A program made the position numbers and the translations under genes. Shown here piece by piece: positions 35,411-56,275 of a stretch of DNA of 64,000 nt. The notes beneath the pieces were generated by a model. The model saw only the letters and a program-made list of their open reading frames with translations, was not told the origin of the DNA and did not search any database. The DNA lies in IMG/VR virus record IMGVR_UViG_3300037117_000143, positions 1-64,000 of that record. The stretch is one strand, 5' to 3'. The DNA comes from a virus. Position 1 is the first letter of the stretch. Every line of letters begins with the position of its first letter.

Positions 35411-35626
35411 GTGACGAAGGTTGGAACCGGCGCCGTGACAGAGCACACCTATCTCACCCCACACCTGGCAAAAGAGCAGCTCGCCGCACGCATGCGGCTG
35501 GGCCACATCCTCTATCGGCACGTTGACGTCGACGACATGAATCTCAGCGACGACGCTTTTATTCGGAAGGTGTGGGAGCGCTACCTGGCGTCCCGCGAGA
35601 CGCCTCTCATTGATCCGGCCGAATAA
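35411..35626 (+). CDS. small acidic hypothetical protein at the convergent junction
   Basis: About 71 residues from a GTG at 35411 (a TTG at 35387 is also possible). TYLTPHLAKEQLAARMRLGHILYRHVDVDDMNLSDDAFIRKVWERYL looks like a real helical protein. It is the last gene of the rightward structural block and its final 20 bases overlap the end of the leftward primase-helicase gene. No terminator is visible between the two. Confidence 0.5.
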   Translation: MTKVGTGAVTEHTYLTPHLAKEQLAARMRLGHILYRHVDVDDMNLSDDAFIRKVWERYLASRETPLIDPAE

Positions 35627-38609
35627 CCTTAAGCCGATCGGCATCGTTGCGCTTCTTGATTTCCGCCGCAGGGGTGTACGCTTGCGCTGTTTCATCCAAC
35701 CAGCTGTCCTGTGGGACAGGGATCTCCAACAGGCGTTCTTGTCCACCTTGGAATAGGGTACCTGCAGCGAGGTTTGCTCGCCCATCCCGCATTTTATAGA
35801 ACGTGCGCAAGCCCGCCATGACCATGCTCGGGCTGTGCTTCGTTTTGTGCAGATGATCGATAAATTGTTTCCGAGAAATTCGCAGCAAGTGCTCGTCAAG
35901 CACGAACTGGACATGGATCGGCGCATCAGTGTGTTCCGGGCCGCCAACAAAACCAACCTGCTTGCTACGGCCGCCAGCGCCGCGCACCATATCACGGGTT
36001 CTGATTGTATTGCCGGCCATGGCTTTGATGAAATGCGTCAAGGCAGCGGTGATATTTTCCTCCGAGTCTCCGATCAAATCTTCCGAGACGACCCGGTCAC
36101 GTATGGCTTTGTAGGAGTCGACGAGGAATACGTGAATTTCTTCAGTGTTGAAGCTAGCTCCAATTGTATTAGCCAATCGAGCACCTGCCAATATTGTGGT
36201 GGCAATCGCGAGCCAGAACCTCTCATCCGGCTTGTACGCGACTTCGTCCGCGAGCTTCTTTTGTGTGTCTGTGACAAATTCCTGCATGGCCTCCGGGTTT
36301 GACAGCATGACCTTGGAATAGCGTTCTCCCATTCGCCCATAGTTGGTCTCCAACTGCTGCTGTAGAATAGTCGCCGCCCACTCCTCGATGCGGCCGGGCG
36401 TATTGTCGTCATTCTTGGGAACAAGGAATTCAAAAGTGCGGTAGATGCCGGCGGCGTTGCTCTGCTGGTGATCAACCATGTAATCGAACAGACTAACGTT
36501 GGAGCAGATCGTCAGCAGCGACTGCCAGCTTCCCACCACCTTCTGCGAGCGGTCGACATTCATCTTGCCGCCGTCCTTGCCTTGGGTGATATCGACAAGA
36601 ACCTCGGCGGCCTTCTCGATGGCCTTGGGCAGCGAGACGTCGTCCCAATAGCACGGCAGGTTATTCAGCTCCGCCATCTTGCCGCGCATGCTGTTCTGTG
36701 ACGAGCTGGCTACTTCCTTAGTCAATTTCGGATTGCCCCAGACAGCGGCGCCCACATTCAACGCAGTAGATTTGTTCCCCCCGCTCTGCGAGTACGCGAC
36801 TAGCGCCCCCGAATAGTGCCCGGTGAAGTGGAGCAAAGGCGATGCAAAGGCCGCCGCGGCAATACATTCGATCGCCGGCCGATGTTGGTCCGTCACCAGC
36901 TTGAGGGCTTTGAACCACGTCTCTATGTCTCCCTGTGGGGTGTAGAGGGCGCGCACGGCGGGATCACCTGAAGATGATTTCATTGTTGTTCCATCCTTCT
37001 TGTTGATGATGCCACCGTAGGCCCAGCCCGTGTCATGGCCGGCTTCCTTGTACCAGCCATAGGGTACGGTATCACGGGCGGCTTTCATACTGTTGAACCT
37101 GTCCATCCACGCCACCATAAACTCCATCAAAAGCTTCGTTGTACCTGGGCTGTAGAGTACGAATTGTTTTGACAGCGATCCGCCTAGCATGGCCGCTGAC
37201 GCCAAATCTTTGCTCTCGACCAACACTTCTACCGTGCTACCTTTATCCGTAGAAGCGGTGAAATTCAAGCCTCTATTCTTCTGCGTCCAGGGCTCTGTGA
37301 TCACGCAGTGGAAGAGCGGTATGTCGACCGGCACGGCAGCCGTGCGCGTTTTCACTATGCGCCCCACGTTGTTGGTGGAGTACCCCAAAGGCAGCTGGAG
37401 GTCGTTGGCGAGAGTGCTAGGATTTGAACCTAGATCCGCGGTGGAGGCCGCTGTTCTATCCGGTTGAACTACACTCCCAAGAATATTAAGCGGCGACTTA
37501 ATCGTGCCTTTAAGCGGGCAGGCAGCGCACTGTTTGGAACCATATTGCTCAAACGTCCTACAAGAGGGCCAGCCAAGCTTCTTTTCTTGCTGCTCCGCTT
37601 CCTTGCGGTCGTACATCGCATCGGCACCCGCCTCGGTGTAATCCGCATGGCCAGTGCTCAGCGTGTGGAAGAGCTCGCGGCCCTTCCGCATGAACGTCGT
37701 CGTGAGGGCTGTGAGCATCCACAGCCCCTGATCGTGGTATTTCCCTCCGGTCAGTATGGTGCCGCGCAGAAACGGGCATTGGTGGAACGCGGGCGCCGGA
37801 TCTAGGAGATCAACTTCAACGGTCCCAATTTCTTTTTGGTACCCAGCGGTGAGGATATCGGGTGATCCGGCTTGCGGGGGAAGGTGGCAGAAGATCCACG
37901 CGCCAGTCTGAGCCCCCGCAGCCACTCGTTGTTGTCCGGGTACGGCTTTGATTCCGGCGAACGCTTGCTCGAAGTTGATGTCTTGCGGGGCGAGGAGGAG
38001 GAGTTTGACTTCGCGAGGGATTTGCTCTTTTTTATTGTAGGTGCCGGGGACGCGGAGAATTCGCGCGCAATCGATTGTAACCCCTGCGTCAAATCGGAGA
38101 CCAAAATGTGTAGCTGCTGTTCGGAGTCCCTCGGCAAATAGGGTCCAACCCTCAACTGGTAACTCTTTAGAAGAGATCCAATAGCAGTGTACTCCACCTC
38201 CAGATCCAACAAGAGCTGTCGGGGAAGGTAAATTTTCGGCGGCGCAGAAGGCCTTGATTGCTTGGAGGGCTTCGGTGACACTGGCATATCCTTTCTCTTT
38301 GACATCTAGGTCAAGCCAAATGGCTTTAAGTGCAACCGTGTTGAGGTGATTTCGGAGTGCGTGCGCGCGACCATTGACTATTTTCCCTATGTCTTTCTGC
38401 CGGCCTAGGCAGAAGTAGATGTCCTTCGCCATGCCCGGATGCGTCTTGGCCCACTCGACACCTTTCATGAAGTCGGCGAGCGTCTGAAACGGCAGGCCGG
38501 CCATACCCTGCCGCTTCACCATAGAATAATGCAAGTTGATGTAGCCGGGTTCATCACCCGGCCACGCCATTACTCGCCTTAGAAATTCCGCAATACTCGG
38601 CGCCACCAT
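35607..38609 (-). CDS. primase-helicase (AEP-like primase fused to DUF927-type helicase)
   Basis: 1000 residues. N-terminal primase-like part: WLDLDVKEKGY (about 97-107, DxD metal site), SGGGVHCYW, and CARILRVPGTYNKK. A cysteine pair 'KQCAACPLKGTIKSPLNIL' closes this half near 375. After a linker comes the helicase: DTVPYGWY...GWAYGG as in DUF927 proteins, Walker A SGGNKST (about 606-612), and Walker B CYWDDV (about 653). It would prime and unwind DNA at the phage fork. The linker (about 377-401) is encoded by a tRNA-like sequence; see that feature. First large gene of the leftward replication module. Confidence 0.8.
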   Translation of the reverse strand: MVAPSIAEFLRRVMAWPGDEPGYINLHYSMVKRQGMAGLPFQTLADFMKGVEWAKTHPGMAKDIYFCLGRQKDIGKIVNGRAHALRNHLNTVALKAIWLDLDVKEKGYASVTEALQAIKAFCAAENLPSPTALVGSGGGVHCYWISSKELPVEGWTLFAEGLRTAATHFGLRFDAGVTIDCARILRVPGTYNKKEQIPREVKLLLLAPQDINFEQAFAGIKAVPGQQRVAAGAQTGAWIFCHLPPQAGSPDILTAGYQKEIGTVEVDLLDPAPAFHQCPFLRGTILTGGKYHDQGLWMLTALTTTFMRKGRELFHTLSTGHADYTEAGADAMYDRKEAEQQEKKLGWPSCRTFEQYGSKQCAACPLKGTIKSPLNILGSVVQPDRTAASTADLGSNPSTLANDLQLPLGYSTNNVGRIVKTRTAAVPVDIPLFHCVITEPWTQKNRGLNFTASTDKGSTVEVLVESKDLASAAMLGGSLSKQFVLYSPGTTKLLMEFMVAWMDRFNSMKAARDTVPYGWYKEAGHDTGWAYGGIINKKDGTTMKSSSGDPAVRALYTPQGDIETWFKALKLVTDQHRPAIECIAAAAFASPLLHFTGHYSGALVAYSQSGGNKSTALNVGAAVWGNPKLTKEVASSSQNSMRGKMAELNNLPCYWDDVSLPKAIEKAAEVLVDITQGKDGGKMNVDRSQKVVGSWQSLLTICSNVSLFDYMVDHQQSNAAGIYRTFEFLVPKNDDNTPGRIEEWAATILQQQLETNYGRMGERYSKVMLSNPEAMQEFVTDTQKKLADEVAYKPDERFWLAIATTILAGARLANTIGASFNTEEIHVFLVDSYKAIRDRVVSEDLIGDSEENITAALTHFIKAMAGNTIRTRDMVRGAGGRSKQVGFVGGPEHTDAPIHVQFVLDEHLLRISRKQFIDHLHKTKHSPSMVMAGLRTFYKMRDGRANLAAGTLFQGGQERLLEIPVPQDSWLDETAQAYTPAAEIKKRNDADRLKVIRPDQ
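37406..37478 (-). tRNA. tRNA-like sequence inside the primase-helicase gene, shortened anticodon arm
   Basis: On the minus strand: acceptor arms GGGAGTG and CACTCTC (one G-U), D-stem GTTC/GAAC with GG in the loop, T-arm CTAGG-TTCAAAT-CCTAG, discriminator G and encoded CCA. Only the anticodon region departs: between the D- and T-arms there are about four bases fewer than normal, leaving GCGG-CCTCCA-CCGC. A CCA triplet after T would suggest Trp, which usually has G73, but the loop is not canonical. The frame of the enclosing gene reads through without a stop. It may be an active odd tRNA, a degenerate tRNA, or a tRNA mimic. Confidence 0.6.
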
Positions 38610-47210: not shown

Positions 47211-48146
47211 TTAGCAATCTCCATAGCTTTGTCCTGAGGATACATCAGCTTTCAACGGAAGGTCCGGTGCCCAGGAAGGTCGCATGACCATCTGGGAATG
47301 TATAATCACTTTCGCGTGATCTACATATTTGTCGGGGACGACCATCAAGAGTTCATCATGGATTTGATGCGCCATGCGCAGAAACGGAATCTTGGTTGCC
47401 TGCAGGCGCAACGCCGTGTTCATTAAGACAATGCGTGACAGAAACTGGGATACGTTTTCCAAGCATGCAGCACCATATATCTTTCGCGGCCGGCCGCCGT
47501 AATCGTACCATAACTCGCCATCTTCGGTTTGCCGTGGGTCGCCGTACAACATACGCAAACTGCCGGGCCCTTCAATGCACCCGCGGCTAATCGTGATGGG
47601 GCCAATTGTCGCAGGGGGGGCTAATCCAAGCCACTCGCGCTTCAGGTGCTTGTCAAGCAGGTACCAGAATTGCACCGTGGCGGCGTTAAACTTGCGGTAA
47701 ATCTTAACGGTCTTTTGGGCCAGCTCAGGCGTCCACATTTCGCCAAGGGCAAGCCCCTGCGTGCGTGCGGCCATACCCGCCTTAATGTAGAAATTATCGG
47801 GGCCAAGGCCGTATTGGAGGCCAAGGACTGCCGTCTTACCCACCCACCGTTCCAACGTGTTCGCTTTCGTTACCGGAAATCCGAAGATTTCGCTGGCCAT
47901 GACACAATACGGGTCGCCATTGTCGACGAAGACCTGCAGGAGGGCGCTCTGAGACAGCCAGGCGACCATCCTGGCCTCTATTTGCGCTAGATCGCAGGAT
48001 ACCACCTTATGGCCCGGAGGCGCTTCTAAGGCCCCTCTGAGCTCGCCGCCACGGGGTAAGTTCTGGAAGTTGCATTTCCATTCACCTGATAACCTATGAG
48101 TGTGTGCACCGGCATAGCGCAGGGCGATCGGCATTAGGTTGGCCAT
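47211..48146 (-). CDS. DNA polymerase A, C-terminal fragment (palm and fingers)
   Basis: 311 residues. GAHTHRLSGEWKCNFQNLPRG, motif A VVSCDLAQIEARMVAWL (catalytic Asp), the fingers segment VGKTAVLGLQYGLG (motif B region) and motif C AHQIHDELLMVVP (catalytic Asp) show a complete family A polymerase core. The N-terminal exonuclease and thumb are in the next ORF in the -1 frame. Reading the two as one requires a -1 shift on GGGG at 48152-48155, which gives LLAIAGAIMANLMPIALRYAGAHT without a gap in the family pattern. Confidence 0.85.
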   Translation of the reverse strand: MANLMPIALRYAGAHTHRLSGEWKCNFQNLPRGGELRGALEAPPGHKVVSCDLAQIEARMVAWLSQSALLQVFVDNGDPYCVMASEIFGFPVTKANTLERWVGKTAVLGLQYGLGPDNFYIKAGMAARTQGLALGEMWTPELAQKTVKIYRKFNAATVQFWYLLDKHLKREWLGLAPPATIGPITISRGCIEGPGSLRMLYGDPRQTEDGELWYDYGGRPRKIYGAACLENVSQFLSRIVLMNTALRLQATKIPFLRMAHQIHDELLMVVPDKYVDHAKVIIHSQMVMRPSWAPDLPLKADVSSGQSYGDC

Positions 48147-49042
48147 GATAGCCCCGCAATCGCTAAAAGGCGCTCCGTTCGGCTCTCTTCCAGCGTAGAC
48201 TTCAATCCAATTCTTGCGGCCGCCAGGCTTTGCACGCGAGGGTTTTCATGCTCTAGCAAATCAACCATGAATTGATCTGATTTTGCCAGGGCTGGAATGG
48301 TATTGCCCGTGTTCGATACCTTTGTCTCGATTTCCACGCCTTCGGCCACGAGCAGGGCGGCAAATTGAGTAGCGGACATTAGCTGGGGCTTCTCAACGCT
48401 AGCCCCCCGCAGCAACGCTTCTTTGGCGGCGCACACGTTCTCTAGGTGCGCCGTGAGCTTGGGAATGTTCATGGTGAGCCTTGGTTCCACTGCACATCTA
48501 AGCACCAAGTCCATTACCCGATACTCGGCTTTCGGGAACGATGGCGCTAGCTTATTGAAAACGCCCTTGAGCAGGCGCACATCTTGTGCGGCATATTCAC
48601 AAAAGGACGGAAACAGGCCAGCAGCGATTATGTCGGCGCGCCGCATGCCAATGACGCTGCGGATCGTGTCGCCTTTGTCGCCGAGCTCCAGATGCTTTGC
48701 AACGCTTTCAAGGCTCAATCGTCTGAGTTTGTGGCCCAATAGAGCGCGAGCCATACCAAGCCCGTCGACCATACGACTCGGCACCCAACCAAAACGCCAA
48801 GCCAGAATGCAATTGTCGAATAGGGCGTTGAAAGTAAGGCTGATGCAATCAGCAGGGTCGTGCTGACTAAGCCAATCACGAAATTTAGGCCCATCAACGT
48901 TTTGAACGGGGCCAGCGTCAATTTGGGTCGCGCAGCAAATTGTTTCATAGCGTTCATCCAGTATGTATTGCGCCGGCGTCATTTTGCGCAGGCTGTATTC
49001 CTTGTCGTAGTACGTTTCGAAGTCGAGTGTGATCAGCTTCAT
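48134..49042 (-). CDS. DNA polymerase A, N-terminal fragment (3'-5' exonuclease and thumb)
   Basis: 302 residues. ExoI ITLDFETYYD (Asp7, Glu9), ExoII TFNALFDNCIL, ExoIII SFCEYAAQDVRLLKGVF, so all proofreading metal ligands are present. A helical thumb with LAAARIGLKSTLEESRTERLLAIAG follows, after which the frame goes GLSWPT and stops. In one-piece relatives the chain continues directly into the palm. Explanations: true split gene with translational coupling (13-base overlap), programmed -1 frameshift, or an indel in a G run. Confidence 0.85.
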   Translation of the reverse strand: MKLITLDFETYYDKEYSLRKMTPAQYILDERYETICCATQIDAGPVQNVDGPKFRDWLSQHDPADCISLTFNALFDNCILAWRFGWVPSRMVDGLGMARALLGHKLRRLSLESVAKHLELGDKGDTIRSVIGMRRADIIAAGLFPSFCEYAAQDVRLLKGVFNKLAPSFPKAEYRVMDLVLRCAVEPRLTMNIPKLTAHLENVCAAKEALLRGASVEKPQLMSATQFAALLVAEGVEIETKVSNTGNTIPALAKSDQFMVDLLEHENPRVQSLAAARIGLKSTLEESRTERLLAIAGLSWPT

Positions 49043-51882: not shown

Positions 51883-52518
51883 CTAGTGCGCATGATAGGC
51901 GACCTGTTTCACGTCCCGGTTCCAGCATGCGCGGCAATCTTTGCATTCGTTGTCTTGTTGCTGCGCCGGGCATGCATGCGCGCTCTTATCCGGCTTTGTA
52001 TGCTTCCAGACAACGCTTGTCAGTGGCCACGCTTTCGTTGCAGGTCCGTCAATCATGGTGCCGCTAACCCGTATCGCAAGGTTATCAGGAACAATACCGC
52101 CGGTTTTGACGTAGGCTTGCACAAAACCGAGCTCTTTCGTCGGTAGCCAATGGCGCACGCGAGGCGTCAACTTGCACACTGCGACAATCTTCGCTAGATG
52201 CCATGCGCCTTGCAAATCGCCCGAATCGAACCACCTGAAAACGTTTTGACCCCCGCGCAAAATAAGAACGGCCATTGCGCTAGGCCATTGCGGCGCTTCT
52301 AGCGCGGCCATATGATTGGCGTGCGATTTCTTTACGCTTGGATATTGATAGTTTCCGCGATCAAGGGCATAGCATACGCTGCACACACTACCTTTTATTT
52401 TGGCTAACTTTCCGCCCGTGATGCAATCGCTAGCAGATATAGAATACGATTGGCCCGGCATTTTGCTCACCTGGCCTAATCCGCCGCCTGTTAGCTTCTT
52501 GGCCTCACCGATATTCAT
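51883..52518 (-). CDS. GP88/DUF7227-like cysteine-rich phage protein
   Basis: 211 residues. KMPGQSYSISASDCITGGKLAKIKGSVCSVCYAL, YPSVKKSHANHM, RWFDSGDLQG, then CPAQQQDNECKDCRACWNRDV near the end. Cysteine groups at both ends suggest a metal or Fe-S site. The pattern matches the mycobacteriophage gp88-type family, whose function is unknown. It has an ATGA overlap with the short gene before it. Confidence 0.6.
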   Translation of the reverse strand: MNIGEAKKLTGGGLGQVSKMPGQSYSISASDCITGGKLAKIKGSVCSVCYALDRGNYQYPSVKKSHANHMAALEAPQWPSAMAVLILRGGQNVFRWFDSGDLQGAWHLAKIVAVCKLTPRVRHWLPTKELGFVQAYVKTGGIVPDNLAIRVSGTMIDGPATKAWPLTSVVWKHTKPDKSAHACPAQQQDNECKDCRACWNRDVKQVAYHAH

Positions 52519-52649: not shown

Positions 52650-52699
52650 GCGGCGTGATTGCCGAACCTGCGCCCGTTAAGGCGCAAGCGCTGCGATCA
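52650..52699 (-). other. class I two-stem-loop element, copy A
   Basis: On the minus strand: TGATCGCAGC, stem TGCGCC/GGCGCA, then TTCGGCAATCACGCCGC. It lies between the stop of the gene at 52720 and the start at 52631. The flanking blocks match copies B, C and D. Confidence 0.7.
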
Positions 52700-52719
52700 A
52701 AGCGACAATTCCATAAACA

Positions 52720-52929
52720 TCATGATAACCCCCGACATTGGCGCAGCACGCTCTCACACTCTTGGAGCAGATCGGCGGACACTTGCCCTAGGGCGCGTTC
52801 CGCCAAGAGCTCTTGTTCTAGCGCGGCAACGTAGGCGATGCTAGGAAGCTCTCTGATAACATGCCGCATCTTGTGCGCTGTTGCGCGTGCGCGTTCTTGT
52901 CGTTTCGTTTGCAGGTCAATTATAGTCAT
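52720..52929 (-). CDS. 69-residue helical hypothetical protein
   Basis: ATG with AAGGA upstream. MTIIDLQTKRQERARATAHKM, then two helices (IAYVAALEQELLAERALGQVSADLLQECESVL). Probably a small coiled-coil protein; not recognised. Confidence 0.6.
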   Translation of the reverse strand: MTIIDLQTKRQERARATAHKMRHVIRELPSIAYVAALEQELLAERALGQVSADLLQECESVLRQCRGLS

Positions 52930-52941
52930 GGCGTGTTTTCC

Positions 52942-53175
52942 TTATGCTTTCGTTGCACAGTTTATTCCGCTTTTGTCACCGCTGGCAAGTTTCTTCGTGC
53001 GCGCGCGTTCACAAAAATAGCCTGCCATCCATGAGGCAAGCAATTCACTTTCGCCCCAGCCGCACGAGCGCGCAACTTGTTCAACGTTGGCACGATCGGC
53101 CGGGCGATTATTGCGCCAATAGGCGATGCCGGCTTGGTGTGCCGCGATCATGTTTGTTTCTTGTTCGTTCGTCAT
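52942..53175 (-). CDS. 77-residue hypothetical protein (ribosome modulation-like pattern)
   Basis: ATG preceded by AGGAGCAAATA, a leader shared with two other genes. AAHQAGIAYWRNNRPADRANVEQVARSCGWGESELLASWMAGY: the 'A...G..A...G......P' plus 'W..G' layout is like small Rmf-type or host-takeover proteins, but this is weak. Preceded by class I element B. Confidence 0.55.
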   Translation of the reverse strand: MTNEQETNMIAAHQAGIAYWRNNRPADRANVEQVARSCGWGESELLASWMAGYFCERARTKKLASGDKSGINCATKA

Positions 53176-53196
53176 AGCGTTATTTGCTCCTCAGTC

Positions 53197-53250
53197 TGGC
53201 ATGATTGCCGACAATGGCGCGAATCGCACGCACGCCATTAGCTGCAATCA
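53197..53250 (-). other. class I two-stem-loop element, copy B
   Basis: Minus strand: starts with the stop codon of the upstream gene (TGATTGCAGC), stem AATGGCG/CGCCATT with a large loop, then TCGGCAATCATGCCA, whose GGCA/TGCC form the second hairpin. The first stem differs in sequence from the other copies but still pairs. Confidence 0.7.
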
Positions 53251-53541
53251 AATCGGGGCTACAATCAATCTACGGTCAATCATGTCGCGGCCGCATTGGA
53301 TGGCGCTTTTCCAATAGATAGCCCAATGCAGGGCTAGCGCGTGCGCTGTAGCGCCTTCTATTGTCTCGTGCTTGGTATTGTCCATGCCCCCGTCATGCCT
53401 CCAAGCGACCACCCTGCATTCAGCCGGCCGCTTAGTCGGCAGGGGCGCCGCAGGCGGTTCAATGGGCGGAATAGTGTCCGCCAATATCGGTGCGAACGGA
53501 ATTTCATCCCACGCGATTTTAGCACGCGTTTTTGTAGGCAT
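53248..53541 (-). CDS. 97-residue hypothetical protein
   Basis: ATG at 53541 with AGGAGCAAATA upstream. Pro-rich first half (FAPILADTIPPIEPPAAPLP), then VVAWRHDGG and a helical end (GATAHALALHWAIYWKSAIQCGRDMI). Its stop codon is part of class I element B. Not recognised. Confidence 0.55.
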   Translation of the reverse strand: MPTKTRAKIAWDEIPFAPILADTIPPIEPPAAPLPTKRPAECRVVAWRHDGGMDNTKHETIEGATAHALALHWAIYWKSAIQCGRDMIDRRLIVAPI

Positions 53542-53555
53542 CTTATTTGCTCCTA

Positions 53556-53614
53556 GCGGCAGGATTGCCGACAATGCCCCGTGGCAACGTGCTACGGGGC
53601 ATCAGCTGCAATTA
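53556..53614 (-). other. class I two-stem-loop element, copy C
   Basis: Minus strand: TAATTGCAGC (the TAA is the stop of the DUF932 gene), a 9-bp stem ATGCCCCGT/ACGGGGCAT, then TCGGCAATCCTGCCGC and the leader TAGGAGCAAATA of the next gene. Its first loop also holds a GTGGCAACGTGC motif. Confidence 0.7.
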
Positions 53615-54628
53615 CGCTGCAACACGGTCCTTAATCATCGGCATCAACAAGCCTAGCGCCTTGTCCTTGAGCGCCGCGCCGGAACCAAAGAGGCGGTTTT
53701 CAGTATTGCCAGCATCACGATCATGGTCAACATAGCGCGTGATCGCCTGAAGCGCGGTAAAGGCATCAATGTTCGCAGCGCCACCCGTGAACTTTATCGC
53801 CCGCTCGTTGCACGAGGTTGAAAGCGCATCGATAATCGATTGACGCTGATTTTTTTTGCGCGTCGAAACGTCTTTTTGTTCAGCGTCAATTGGAATATCC
53901 AGAACGCCGCGAATGAACGCGGAGAGCGCTTCCTTAGGCATAATGAAGCCGGCCAAAGCATCGCCGATTTGCTTGTACTGCGCGAAGCCGGCCGCAATCG
54001 ATGCAAGGGCTTTCATCGCCTTTGCAGCGTCGAACTTGGTGGAATGGCGCACGTTGATTTTGGGCGCGTCCTCACCCATGGCGACATTGATTGTATTCTG
54101 ACAAACAACGCATTCCATGCATGATTGTAGGCGCGTAGGGCTTGTCGTGTTGAACGTAGTGGAAGCTAGTAGGCGCACCTTGTGCGCCGATCCGCCGATG
54201 GTTTGTTCACCTGCAAAAGTGGCCTGTGCCCATATGCGTTTTCCGCCATCAAGGCTCCCCATAGTCGTCATGGTGAAACGCGGATCGATCTCGATCAATT
54301 CCCATAGTGCATTTTGCGCGTCAACCGGTTGCACCAAATTGTAGCGCGTGGAAACAAGGCCAAGCCCCGCGCCGGTATCTTCCCGGGCATTTACGAAACG
54401 ATCCGGATAGTCGCGCAGCGCGCCCGTAGCGTCGCGGTAGTGCACGGGAGTGGCGCTAACAGTGAAGCTTGACCCAGCGGCTTCGCTCCACTCTTCCCGC
54501 GTCAGCGGCCGGCCAAGGCGCGCCACGATATCGTCAACCGATTGGCCAGTACCGTGCCAGATTTTTGAACGTGGGCCGACGAAAGCAAGGGCGACAAAGC
54601 CCAAGGTCTCGTCAAGATTTGCAGACAT
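53612..54628 (-). CDS. DUF932 protein (phage/plasmid-like)
   Basis: 338 residues, ATG preceded by TAGGAGCAAATA. GLVSTRYNLVQPVDAQNALWEL, VRLLASTTFNTTSPTRLQSCMECVVCQNTINVA, and TKFDAAKAMKALASIAAGF are DUF932 (TIGR03299-type) blocks. Such proteins are frequent on phages and plasmids, with unproven function; links to DNA replication or recombination have been suggested. It is the largest gene of the accessory array and has a 130-base leader with a palindrome (GGCGGTCACCGCC, 54659-54671). Confidence 0.8.
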   Translation of the reverse strand: MSANLDETLGFVALAFVGPRSKIWHGTGQSVDDIVARLGRPLTREEWSEAAGSSFTVSATPVHYRDATGALRDYPDRFVNAREDTGAGLGLVSTRYNLVQPVDAQNALWELIEIDPRFTMTTMGSLDGGKRIWAQATFAGEQTIGGSAHKVRLLASTTFNTTSPTRLQSCMECVVCQNTINVAMGEDAPKINVRHSTKFDAAKAMKALASIAAGFAQYKQIGDALAGFIMPKEALSAFIRGVLDIPIDAEQKDVSTRKKNQRQSIIDALSTSCNERAIKFTGGAANIDAFTALQAITRYVDHDRDAGNTENRLFGSGAALKDKALGLLMPMIKDRVAA

Positions 54629-54709
54629 AATATTTGCTCCTAGGTGAGAGTTTTTAGGGGCGGTGACCGCCGTTCTAGGTCACATTAGGCTCAAACGAAA
54701 GCACCCCTA

Positions 54710-54759
54710 GCGGCATGATTGCCGAACCTGCGCCCGCTAGGGCGCAAGCGCTGCAATCA
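54710..54759 (-). other. class I two-stem-loop element, copy D
   Basis: Minus strand: TGATTGCAGC (its TGA is the stop of the upstream gene), perfect stem TGCGCCC/GGGCGCA with a four-base loop, then TTCGGCAATCATGCCGC forming the second hairpin (CGGCA-ATCA-TGCCG). Nearly identical to copy A in its first half. Confidence 0.75.
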
Positions 54760-54930
54760 ATCCTCAAAACGGTCGCGGGACAGGTAGCGTGTGAAGTATT
54801 CATCGACGGCGAGGGGTTCCGGATATTGCGGCGCCACGACATGCAAGGTGGCGGCGGTGCGGGCGATTTCGCGTCTAGCGTGGTCTCGATGACCGGCATA
54901 AGCGGCTAGCTGCAGCAGTGGGGTAAGCAT
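54757..54930 (-). CDS. 57-residue hypothetical protein
   Basis: ATG with AAAGGA upstream. LTPLLQLAAYAGHRDHARREIARTAATLHVV, then YPEPLAVDEYFTRYLSRDRFED. Mostly helical. Its stop is the first codon of class I element D. An overlapping frame (54675-54899) was judged a shadow. Not recognised. Confidence 0.55.
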   Translation of the reverse strand: MLTPLLQLAAYAGHRDHARREIARTAATLHVVAPQYPEPLAVDEYFTRYLSRDRFED

Positions 54931-55208: not shown

Positions 55209-55240
55209 GACAACTTGTTTCCATCTTCGCTAGGCGGCAG

Positions 55241-55424
55241 CAGGGCTTTGATGGCCGCGTCTAGGTTGGGGTCTGCAGGCTCAGGTATGACCGTGGCAAC
55301 GTGCTCAGAGGGCATTGCGGCAACGTTGGCCACAGGGCTTTGATGGCCGCGTCTAGGTTGGGGTCTGCAGGCTCAGGTATGACCGTGGCAACGTGCTCAG
55401 AGGGCATTGCGGCAACGTTGGCCA
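55241..55424. repeat. exact 92-bp tandem duplication
   Basis: 55241-55332 and 55333-55424 are identical. 92 is not a multiple of three, so the second copy shifts the reading frame of the gene read leftward through it. No mismatch is seen, so the event is recent or is an assembly artefact. Confidence 0.9.
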
Positions 55425-55814: not shown

Positions 55815-56275
55815 GGGGTCATAATCCAGGGGGAGCAAAGATAATGGGATAATCAAAACGAGCGGAAAACGTCAATGGTGGCAACGTGTTATAAGGGTCG
55901 CCCTCAAAAGTCAGCTAGAAATAAGACTTCTATAATATACTATACATGAGAAAAAGTGGAACGTCCCCCTGGGGCTTCATGCATCCTTACGAGGCCGTGA
56001 GCACGTTGCCACGTGAGCCCCCGTGAAAGTCTGTTATACATTAGAATCCGGTCGGATTATGCCGATTTGACCCCCTTTTGGCACGTTTTCCCCTTTAAAA
56101 CCTCATAATCCATATTTATTGCTATATAGCGGATTATGCTACATAATGTCGCAGGTAATCCTAATAATGGAATCTAATAAATCTAATAACGGTGCGACCT
56201 TTAGCCGCAGGCAGCTCGCATACCGTGACAAGGCACGTTAACCCGTTGATATCAATGCGACATTTAGCCGCGCCT

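What the first reader, a model, noticed from the sequence alone, without database searches (positions are those of the whole stretch)
52650..54759. Four-copy family of intergenic elements with two stem-loops and compensatory stems
Seen: at 52650, 53197, 53556 and 54710 (minus strand) a unit begins at or near a stop codon (TGATTGCAGC), carries a first hairpin whose stem sequence differs between copies yet always pairs, then the constant TCGGCAATCATGCCGC forming a second hairpin. Two copies (B and C) are followed by an AGGAGCAAATA leader and a start codon. Conserved structure with changing sequence is strong evidence for function at the RNA level. Start-associated sequences of some mycobacteriophages are a distant analogy. 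It could be a processing site, a translational switch or a binding site for a phage protein.
Basis: seen in the sequence. Interest (0 to 1): 0.82.

Follow-up and report, generated by a model that had tools for sequence, protein, structure and literature searches.

The report
Shared RNA hairpins between phage genes
Many uncultured phages carry, between their small genes, copies of one RNA hairpin that keeps its shape while its sequence changes, starts at the stop codon of one gene and ends just before the next; it is a new RNA family that probably cuts, protects or punctuates phage messages.

Summary
The four window copies belong to an undescribed element: about 95 model matches on about 45 IMG/VR contigs, no convincing copy in 85,000 bacterial genomes or INPHARED phages, no Rfam match. 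Architecture: UGAUUGC pairs with GCAAUCA (P1); then a constant AGYN/RNCG internal loop; then P2, 8-16 bp, of changing sequence that always pairs; then a GCCG tail. Four divergent copies keep both P1 and H3 by coordinated changes, so the element has two alternative folds. P1 overlaps or lies within 8 nt of the upstream stop codon in 76 of 82 copies. A Shine-Dalgarno and start codon usually follow at once. The P1-P2 rod is about 22 layers, two A-form turns. Gene content changes at elements, and P2 travels with the downstream gene. Predicted SD accessibility hardly depends on the element or its state, which argues against an SD-masking switch. Best explanation (inferred, about 0.4): an RNase III-type intergenic processing site whose cut leaves H3 as a protective 5' hairpin. 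Rivals: protein-binding site, ribosome-gated switch, recombination junction. New variant of a known kind.

The parts
54710..54759 (-). Element D. Starts with the TGA stop of the 57-aa ORF 54757-54930; P1 arms 54753-54759 and 54716-54722; P2 54740-54749 with 54726-54735; alternative hairpin H3 54711-54724. The next gene (DUF932) starts 83 nt further on.
53556..53614 (-). Element C. Starts with the TAA stop of the DUF932 gene; P2 ATGCCCCGT..ACGGGGCAT; followed by TAGGAGCAAATAAG-ATG of the 97-aa gene.
53196..53250 (-). Element B. Starts with the TGA stop of the 97-aa gene; P2 AATGGCG..CGCCATT; followed by GAGGAGCAAATAACGCT-ATG of the 77-aa gene.
52650..52699 (-). Element A. About 20 nt after the stop of the 69-aa gene; same P2 as D; followed by AAGGAAGTGAAGCT-ATG of a 38-aa gene, then GP88.
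53612..54628 (-). DUF932 gene (338 aa) between D and C; a recurrent neighbour of the element (8 of 40 contigs).
53248..53541 (-). Gene of 97 aa between C and B; no family match.
52942..53175 (-). Gene of 77 aa downstream of B; no family match.
51883..52518 (-). GP88 (PF17338) gene, second gene after element A; a recurrent neighbour of the element (15 of 40 contigs).

Best explanation
It is a modular, structured intergenic mRNA element that travels as the 5' leader of the gene downstream. SHOWN by sequence: a two-turn hairpin, P1 (7 bp), a constant AGYN/RNCG internal loop and P2 (about 11 bp of free sequence), laid over the stop codon of the upstream gene and followed at once by a Shine-Dalgarno and start codon. 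The 3' arm of P1 can pair instead with a GCCG tail to form hairpin H3. INFERRED: the long hairpin is an RNase III-type processing site that separates polycistronic phage mRNA at gene junctions. A cut on the 3' side of the internal loop would leave P2 as a 3'-end hairpin on the upstream message and CGGCAAUCAUGCCG as a flush 5' hairpin (H3) on the downstream message. Both ends would then be shielded from exonucleases and 5'-end-dependent decay. A ribosome terminating at the stop codon would cover nt 1-12, melt P1 and delay the cut, tying processing to translation.
For: RNA-level conservation: P2 covariation, G.U over A.C 18:5. Length: in 57 distinct copies found with a pattern that left P2 free, total layers have a median of 22, 51 of 57 lie in 20-24 and none is below 19. 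The rod has a constant central internal loop: G9-C pair 81/81, A.G 80/81. T7 R1.1, a 60-nt intergenic RNase III site with a 4/5 internal loop, is cut by an alphaproteobacterial RNase III (PMC6121014). H3 begins exactly at the C after the internal loop. It is kept in most copies (GCC tail in 65 of 73 copies when left free) and by coordinated change with P1 in four non-canonical copies (L120 twice, L116, L233). Predicted fold: P1 median 0.96 when free; H3 median 0.94 when nt 1-12 are blocked. Stop codon at P1 position 0 in 56 of 82 copies and within -8..0 in 76 of 82. Downstream genes share no function, so a general junction role fits better than a metabolite sensor.
Against: No cut has been seen; cleavage, its site and any effect on stability are inference. 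A highly constant internal loop and P1 sequence is more than RNase III usually demands and would also suit a dedicated binding protein. Some copies lack the GCCG tail (3 of 5 strong copies on L255), so H3 is not universal. Stop-codon overlap could be plain genome compaction. The descriptor scan selects for P1 pairing, so its P1 covariation count is biased upward.
Confidence: 0.4

Rival explanations
1. Binding site for a phage or host RNA-binding protein (translational regulator, antitermination factor or localisation tag). The constant P1/internal loop and the H3 hairpin are read by the protein, and P2 is only a spacer stem.
For: The internal-loop bases A8, G9, C and G and the CGGC/GCCG bases are nearly invariant while P2 sequence is free. 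The element sits next to SD sequences.
Against: P1 sequence can be wholly replaced with compensation (L233 7085 GTTGATG/CATCAAT; L116 2581), so sequence-specific reading would be confined to AGY/CG. A spacer stem need not measure 10-12 bp. No gene shared by all carriers was found (GP88 in 15 of 40 contigs, DUF932 in 8 of 40).
Confidence: 0.25
2. Ribosome-gated two-state switch. Translation of the upstream gene to its stop melts P1 and lets H3 form beside the next SD, so that initiation at the next gene senses upstream termination.
For: Stop codon in register with P1; P1 and H3 exclude each other and both are conserved; P2 begins at nt 11-13, where a ribosome terminating at nt 1-3 would end; the SD often starts 2-5 nt after the element.
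Against: Predicted SD-to-start accessibility is the same in the native state (0.55), with the stop region blocked (0.56), with the element shuffled (0.53) or deleted (0.54). In about 15% of copies the stop lies 14-39 nt upstream or none was found.
Confidence: 0.2
3. DNA-level junction for gene shuffling: an integron attC-like or homologous-recombination site whose folded single strand or shared sequence lets gene modules be swapped.
For: Related phages differ by whole gene units at elements (G026 vs G045); homology blocks begin or end at elements (9 and 12 of 210 blocks, shifted controls about 0.01); conserved base with variable tip, one orientation within each contig, stop-codon overlap.
Against: Tyrosine recombinase (PF00589) in only 1 of 40 contigs. 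G.U excess on the mRNA strand. H3 and the SD spacing are unexplained. Alignment ends at elements are partly expected because the elements themselves are alike.
Confidence: 0.1
4. Chance palindromes or a transcription terminator.
For: GC-rich hairpins are common in such genomes.
Against: CM E-values to 1e-17, copies on every contig tested; no U-tract, and no terminator-like or promoter-like site at the elements.
Confidence: 0.03

Closest known systems
Extended start-associated sequences (ESAS/SAS) of cluster K mycobacteriophages (PMC3203893)
   Same: Inverted repeats with a variable spacer just upstream of SD and start codons, one orientation, many copies per genome, restricted to non-structural genes, tied to the downstream gene. 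In TM4 the ESAS halves are themselves palindromic (TGTTGA..TCAACA), so long and short hairpins compete there too.
   Different: No shared sequence, no 13-bp SAS, other hosts. Here the distal stem is free in sequence and compensated, the internal loop is constant, and the stop codon lies in the arm.
RNase III processing sites of phage T7 early mRNA (R1.1)
   Same: Intergenic hairpin with an internal loop of about 4 nt per strand (PMC6121014), about two helical turns (own knowledge for R1.1 length).
   Different: T7 sites are not a sequence family with a constant base, and no second hairpin sharing an arm is known to me. Cleavage here is untested.
PeSL promoter-stem-loop cassettes of T4-type phages (Arbiol 2010, Comeau 2014; known here only as cited in PMC4503421)
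   Same: Repeated intergenic elements at junctions where genes are shuffled.
   Different: PeSL combines an early promoter with a stem-loop; no promoter-like site is found at the elements.
Integron attC sites
   Same: Folded conserved base with variable tip at the 3' end of each gene, often overlapping the stop codon; one orientation.
   Different: No RYYYAAC/GTTRRRY boxes, no integrase in 39 of 40 contigs; the unit that travels is element plus downstream gene.

Membership tests
ESAS/SAS of cluster K mycobacteriophages | 13-bp SAS GGGATAGGAGCCC next to the start codon | tested here: not met
   13 matches with 2-3 mismatches in the window, fewer than in shuffles (18.5), none at an element
ESAS/SAS of cluster K mycobacteriophages | 17-bp inverted repeats with variable spacer upstream of starts | tested here: inconclusive
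   Layout alike but sequences unrelated
RNase III processing site (T7 R1.1 type) | Intergenic hairpin of about two helical turns with internal loop | tested here: met
   median 22 layers, internal loop AGYN/RNCG
RNase III processing site (T7 R1.1 type) | Cleavage by RNase III in vivo or in vitro | not testable with these tools
   Needs RNA work
PeSL cassettes of T4-type phages | Early promoter joined to a stem-loop | tested here: not met
   no promoter-like site overlaps an element in the window
Integron attC | Integron or other tyrosine integrase acting on the sites | tested here: not met
   PF00589 in 1 of 40 carrier contigs
Integron attC | R boxes RYYYAAC / GTTRRRY with extrahelical bases | tested here: not met
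   Consensus UGAUUGC/GCAAUCA
Intrinsic terminator | GC-rich stem followed by a U-tract | tested here: not met
Any Rfam 15 family | Match at gathering score | tested here: not met
Bacterial SECIS (UGA followed by hairpin) | UGA recoded and reading continues | tested here: not met
   TAA or TAG replaces TGA in several copies; element lengths vary by steps that are not multiples of three and a new start follows

The most novel reading that the evidence does not exclude
A standardised two-state RNA punctuation mark: phages equip each exchangeable gene module with a leader whose two-turn hairpin and alternative 5' hairpin are toggled by the ribosome terminating on the preceding gene. Message cutting, end protection and translation are thereby coordinated at every swapped junction, whichever genes are joined.
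Probability: 0.25. Interest if true: 0.82.

Novelty: new variant of a known kind. Interest (0 to 1): 0.62.

Why it matters
It is an undescribed RNA family, absent from Rfam, present in many uncultured phages and up to about a dozen times per contig, with compensated stems. It marks the places where related phages swap small genes (ArdC anti-restriction, DUF932, GP88 and many unknowns), so it is a handle for finding accessory genes. It also makes testable how a phage keeps expression working when gene order is reshuffled. If the two-state reading is right, it would be a natural counterpart of the leader insulators used in synthetic biology.

Tried and rejected
Rfam search of the window and of four relatives: nothing meaningful (a mir-3204 hit at L121 7633-7702 is a chance hairpin). 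Genome-contig scan: 21 hits, all without SD and, by eye, without the inner hairpin, taken as chance. INPHARED DNA search with an element plus leader: only chance matches. Eleven cultured phages whose proteins resemble those of carriers: no element. Integron hypothesis: integrase absent. SD-masking switch and RBS insulator: no meaningful effect on predicted SD accessibility. Terminator or promoter: none at the elements. SECIS-type recoding: excluded by TAA and TAG copies. A common carrier protein: GP88 and DUF932 are frequent but not universal. The PeSL papers are not held.

Full report
OBSERVATION. The window is part of a 68,446-base virus record. On the minus strand at 52650-52699, 53196-53250, 53556-53614 and 54710-54759 lie four copies of one element. 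Each sits between two co-directional genes. In B, C and D the first three bases are the stop codon of the upstream gene; in A the stop lies about 20 nt upstream. Copies A and D share one stem; B and C have others.

RELATIVES. A pattern scan of IMG/VR with the two constant parts found further copies at once, and a laxer pattern gave 55 stretches. A covariance model built from 28 copies found copies in all 46 records searched. These records had been chosen by the pattern or by a protein match, so this shows copy number per record, not prevalence. About 95 sense-strand copies were read one by one. The record with most, IMGVR_UViG_3300047160_011747, has about a dozen. All scored copies on a contig point the same way. 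The same pattern in 85,000 bacterial and archaeal genomes gave 21 hits; none was followed by an SD and, read by eye, none shows the inner hairpin, so I take them as chance. INPHARED gave nothing, nor did eleven cultured phages with related proteins. No Rfam family matches. Hosts are unknown; the closest helicase in cultured phages is that of Rhizobium phage RHph_TM3_14A (44%), so proteobacterial soil hosts are only a guess.

STRUCTURE. Consensus: UGAUUGC-AGYN-[P2 5']-loop-[P2 3']-RNCG-GCAAUCA-UGCCG. P1 is UGAUUGC with GCAAUCA; A8.G is a mismatch, G9-C is invariant (81/81), then two mismatches, then P2. On 28 copies 97.7% of cells pair and 93 cells carry a change on both sides, against 27 in shuffles; sliding the partner by one to three columns destroys the pairing. 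In the predicted ensemble P1 wins (median probability 0.96, H3 0.02). If nt 1-12 are kept single, as by a ribosome terminating at nt 1-3, H3 forms (median 0.94).

ARE BOTH FOLDS REAL? With the tail left free in the search, 65 of 73 copies with a good P2 still end in GCC at the right place. With the first three bases left free, variants such as TAA/TTC, GAA/TTC and GAA/TTT (P1 position 2 changed on both sides) appeared. A descriptor scan that fixed only AG, CG, a P2 and mostly paired arms gave 110 hits against 11 in reversed sequence. It revealed copies with quite different arms: GTTGATG/CATCAAT (L233 7085), TGCTGAC/GTCCGCA (L116 2581), CAATCGC/GCGATTG (L116 4900), AGCTTGC/GCAAGCT (L027 11164), and on L120 TGATTGCT/AGCAATC and TGATTGCA/TGTAATCA. 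Five copies lack CGGC; four of them have an SD and start codon, and all four still form H3 with a matching tail (CGAGCA/TGCTCG, CGTGT/GCACG, CCGCA/TGCGG, GCATC/GATGC). With tails swapped among copies such a match arises 19% of the time. The scan selects for P1 pairing, so its P1 statistics are biased upward; the H3 matches were not selected.

RNA OR DNA. Inside P2, G.U pairs outnumber A.C mismatches 18 to 5 on the mRNA-sense strand. That is what a folded transcript predicts, not a cruciform.

POSITION. The upstream stop codon lies exactly at P1 position 0 in 56 of 82 copies and within -8..0 in 76 of 82; for random TGA triplets in the same loci the in-frame rate is 14% (67 of 84 for elements). 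When P1 does not start with TGA, a TAG, TGA or TAA usually lies one to seven bases before it. The SD starts 2-5 nt after the element in about 44 of 75 copies and the start codon 12-21 nt after it in about 56. Downstream products are heterogeneous and mostly unknown; DUF932 (5), GP88 (2), an ArdC anti-restriction protein, an AAA ATPase and a LuxR-type regulator are among them.

LENGTH. In 57 distinct copies from a pattern that allowed any inner part of 12-42 nt, P2 spans 8-16 layers, mostly 10-12. Together with the 11 layers of P1 and the internal loop the rod has a median of 22 layers, 51 of 57 between 20 and 24, none below 19. Two turns of A-form helix are 22 bp (own knowledge), about the size of an RNase III site. 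T7 R1.1 is a 60-nt intergenic RNA with a 4/5 internal loop, cut by Sinorhizobium RNase III (PMC6121014).

GENE SHUFFLING. Phage G045 has one more gene-plus-element unit than its relative G026. Upstream of the element G026 matches the first G045 copy, while its P2 and downstream gene match the second, so the element belongs to the downstream gene. Homology blocks between related phages begin at an element in 9 cases and end at one in 12, against about 0.01 when element positions are shifted; part of this is expected because the elements themselves align.

MECHANISM. An SD-masking switch or insulator would change SD accessibility; predicted accessibility is 0.55 native, 0.56 with the stop region blocked, 0.53 with the element shuffled, 0.54 deleted. 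Only native against shuffled differs, and slightly (p 0.03). This argues against both. A recombination site run by an integrase is unlikely (PF00589 in 1 of 40 contigs). What needs explaining is the two-turn rod, the constant internal loop, a second hairpin that begins exactly after that loop, the stop-codon overlap and the general use before unrelated genes. A processing site explains most: a cut at the internal loop leaves P2 on the upstream end and H3 as a flush 5' hairpin downstream. I give this about 0.4. A dedicated binding protein (0.25) and a ribosome gate acting other than by SD masking (0.2) remain open.

COMPARISON. The nearest published thing is the ESAS of cluster K mycobacteriophages (PMC3203893): inverted repeats of 17 bp before starts of non-structural genes, function unknown. 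In TM4 I find that the ESAS halves are palindromic too. The window element is not an ESAS by the SAS criterion. PeSL cassettes of T4-type phages share the link to gene shuffling but carry promoters, which are absent here. I therefore rate it a new variant of a known kind: a new RNA family in a loose class of phage junction elements.

LIMITS. All carriers are metagenome contigs, most incomplete; no expression data; IMG/VR scans were seeded by the canonical sequence, so more divergent classes are under-sampled and the extent is a lower bound.

Noticed in passing
window 55236-55419: Tandem duplication of 92 bp (98% identical) inside a 165-aa ORF.
   Followed up: no
window 53581, 55293, 55385, 55878, 56273 (+) and 55998-56013 (inverted): Short motif GTGGCAACGTGC recurs six times in 3 kb, once inside the P2 loop of element C; meaning unknown.
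   Followed up: no
window 37409-37478 (-): A tRNA match (Rfam RF00005, 50.6 bits) lies inside the 1000-aa primase/helicase-like ORF 35607-38609 on the same strand.
   Followed up: no
window 47211-49042 (-): Family A DNA polymerase is encoded by two adjacent ORFs, palm part and exonuclease part.
   Followed up: no
L114 and L115 (contig IMGVR_UViG_3300021082_000020, 94,958 bases): The contig holds two homologous copies of the same phage region at about 76% identity, about 46 kb apart; perhaps two phages joined in assembly.
   Followed up: no
L305 (Mycobacterium phage TM4) 4970, 25082, 25672: The ESAS half-sites are themselves palindromic (TGTTGA..TCAACA), so the published ESAS may also fold in two ways.
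   Followed up: partly
L255 (contig IMGVR_UViG_3300044977_000070, 110 kb): A large phage contig with several copies, three of which lack the GCCG tail and run straight into the Shine-Dalgarno, so H3 is dispensable there.
   Followed up: partly
40 carrier contigs: GP88 (PF17338) in 15 and DUF932 (PF06067) in 8 of 40 contigs, in most cases near an element; both are phage families of unknown function.
   Followed up: partly
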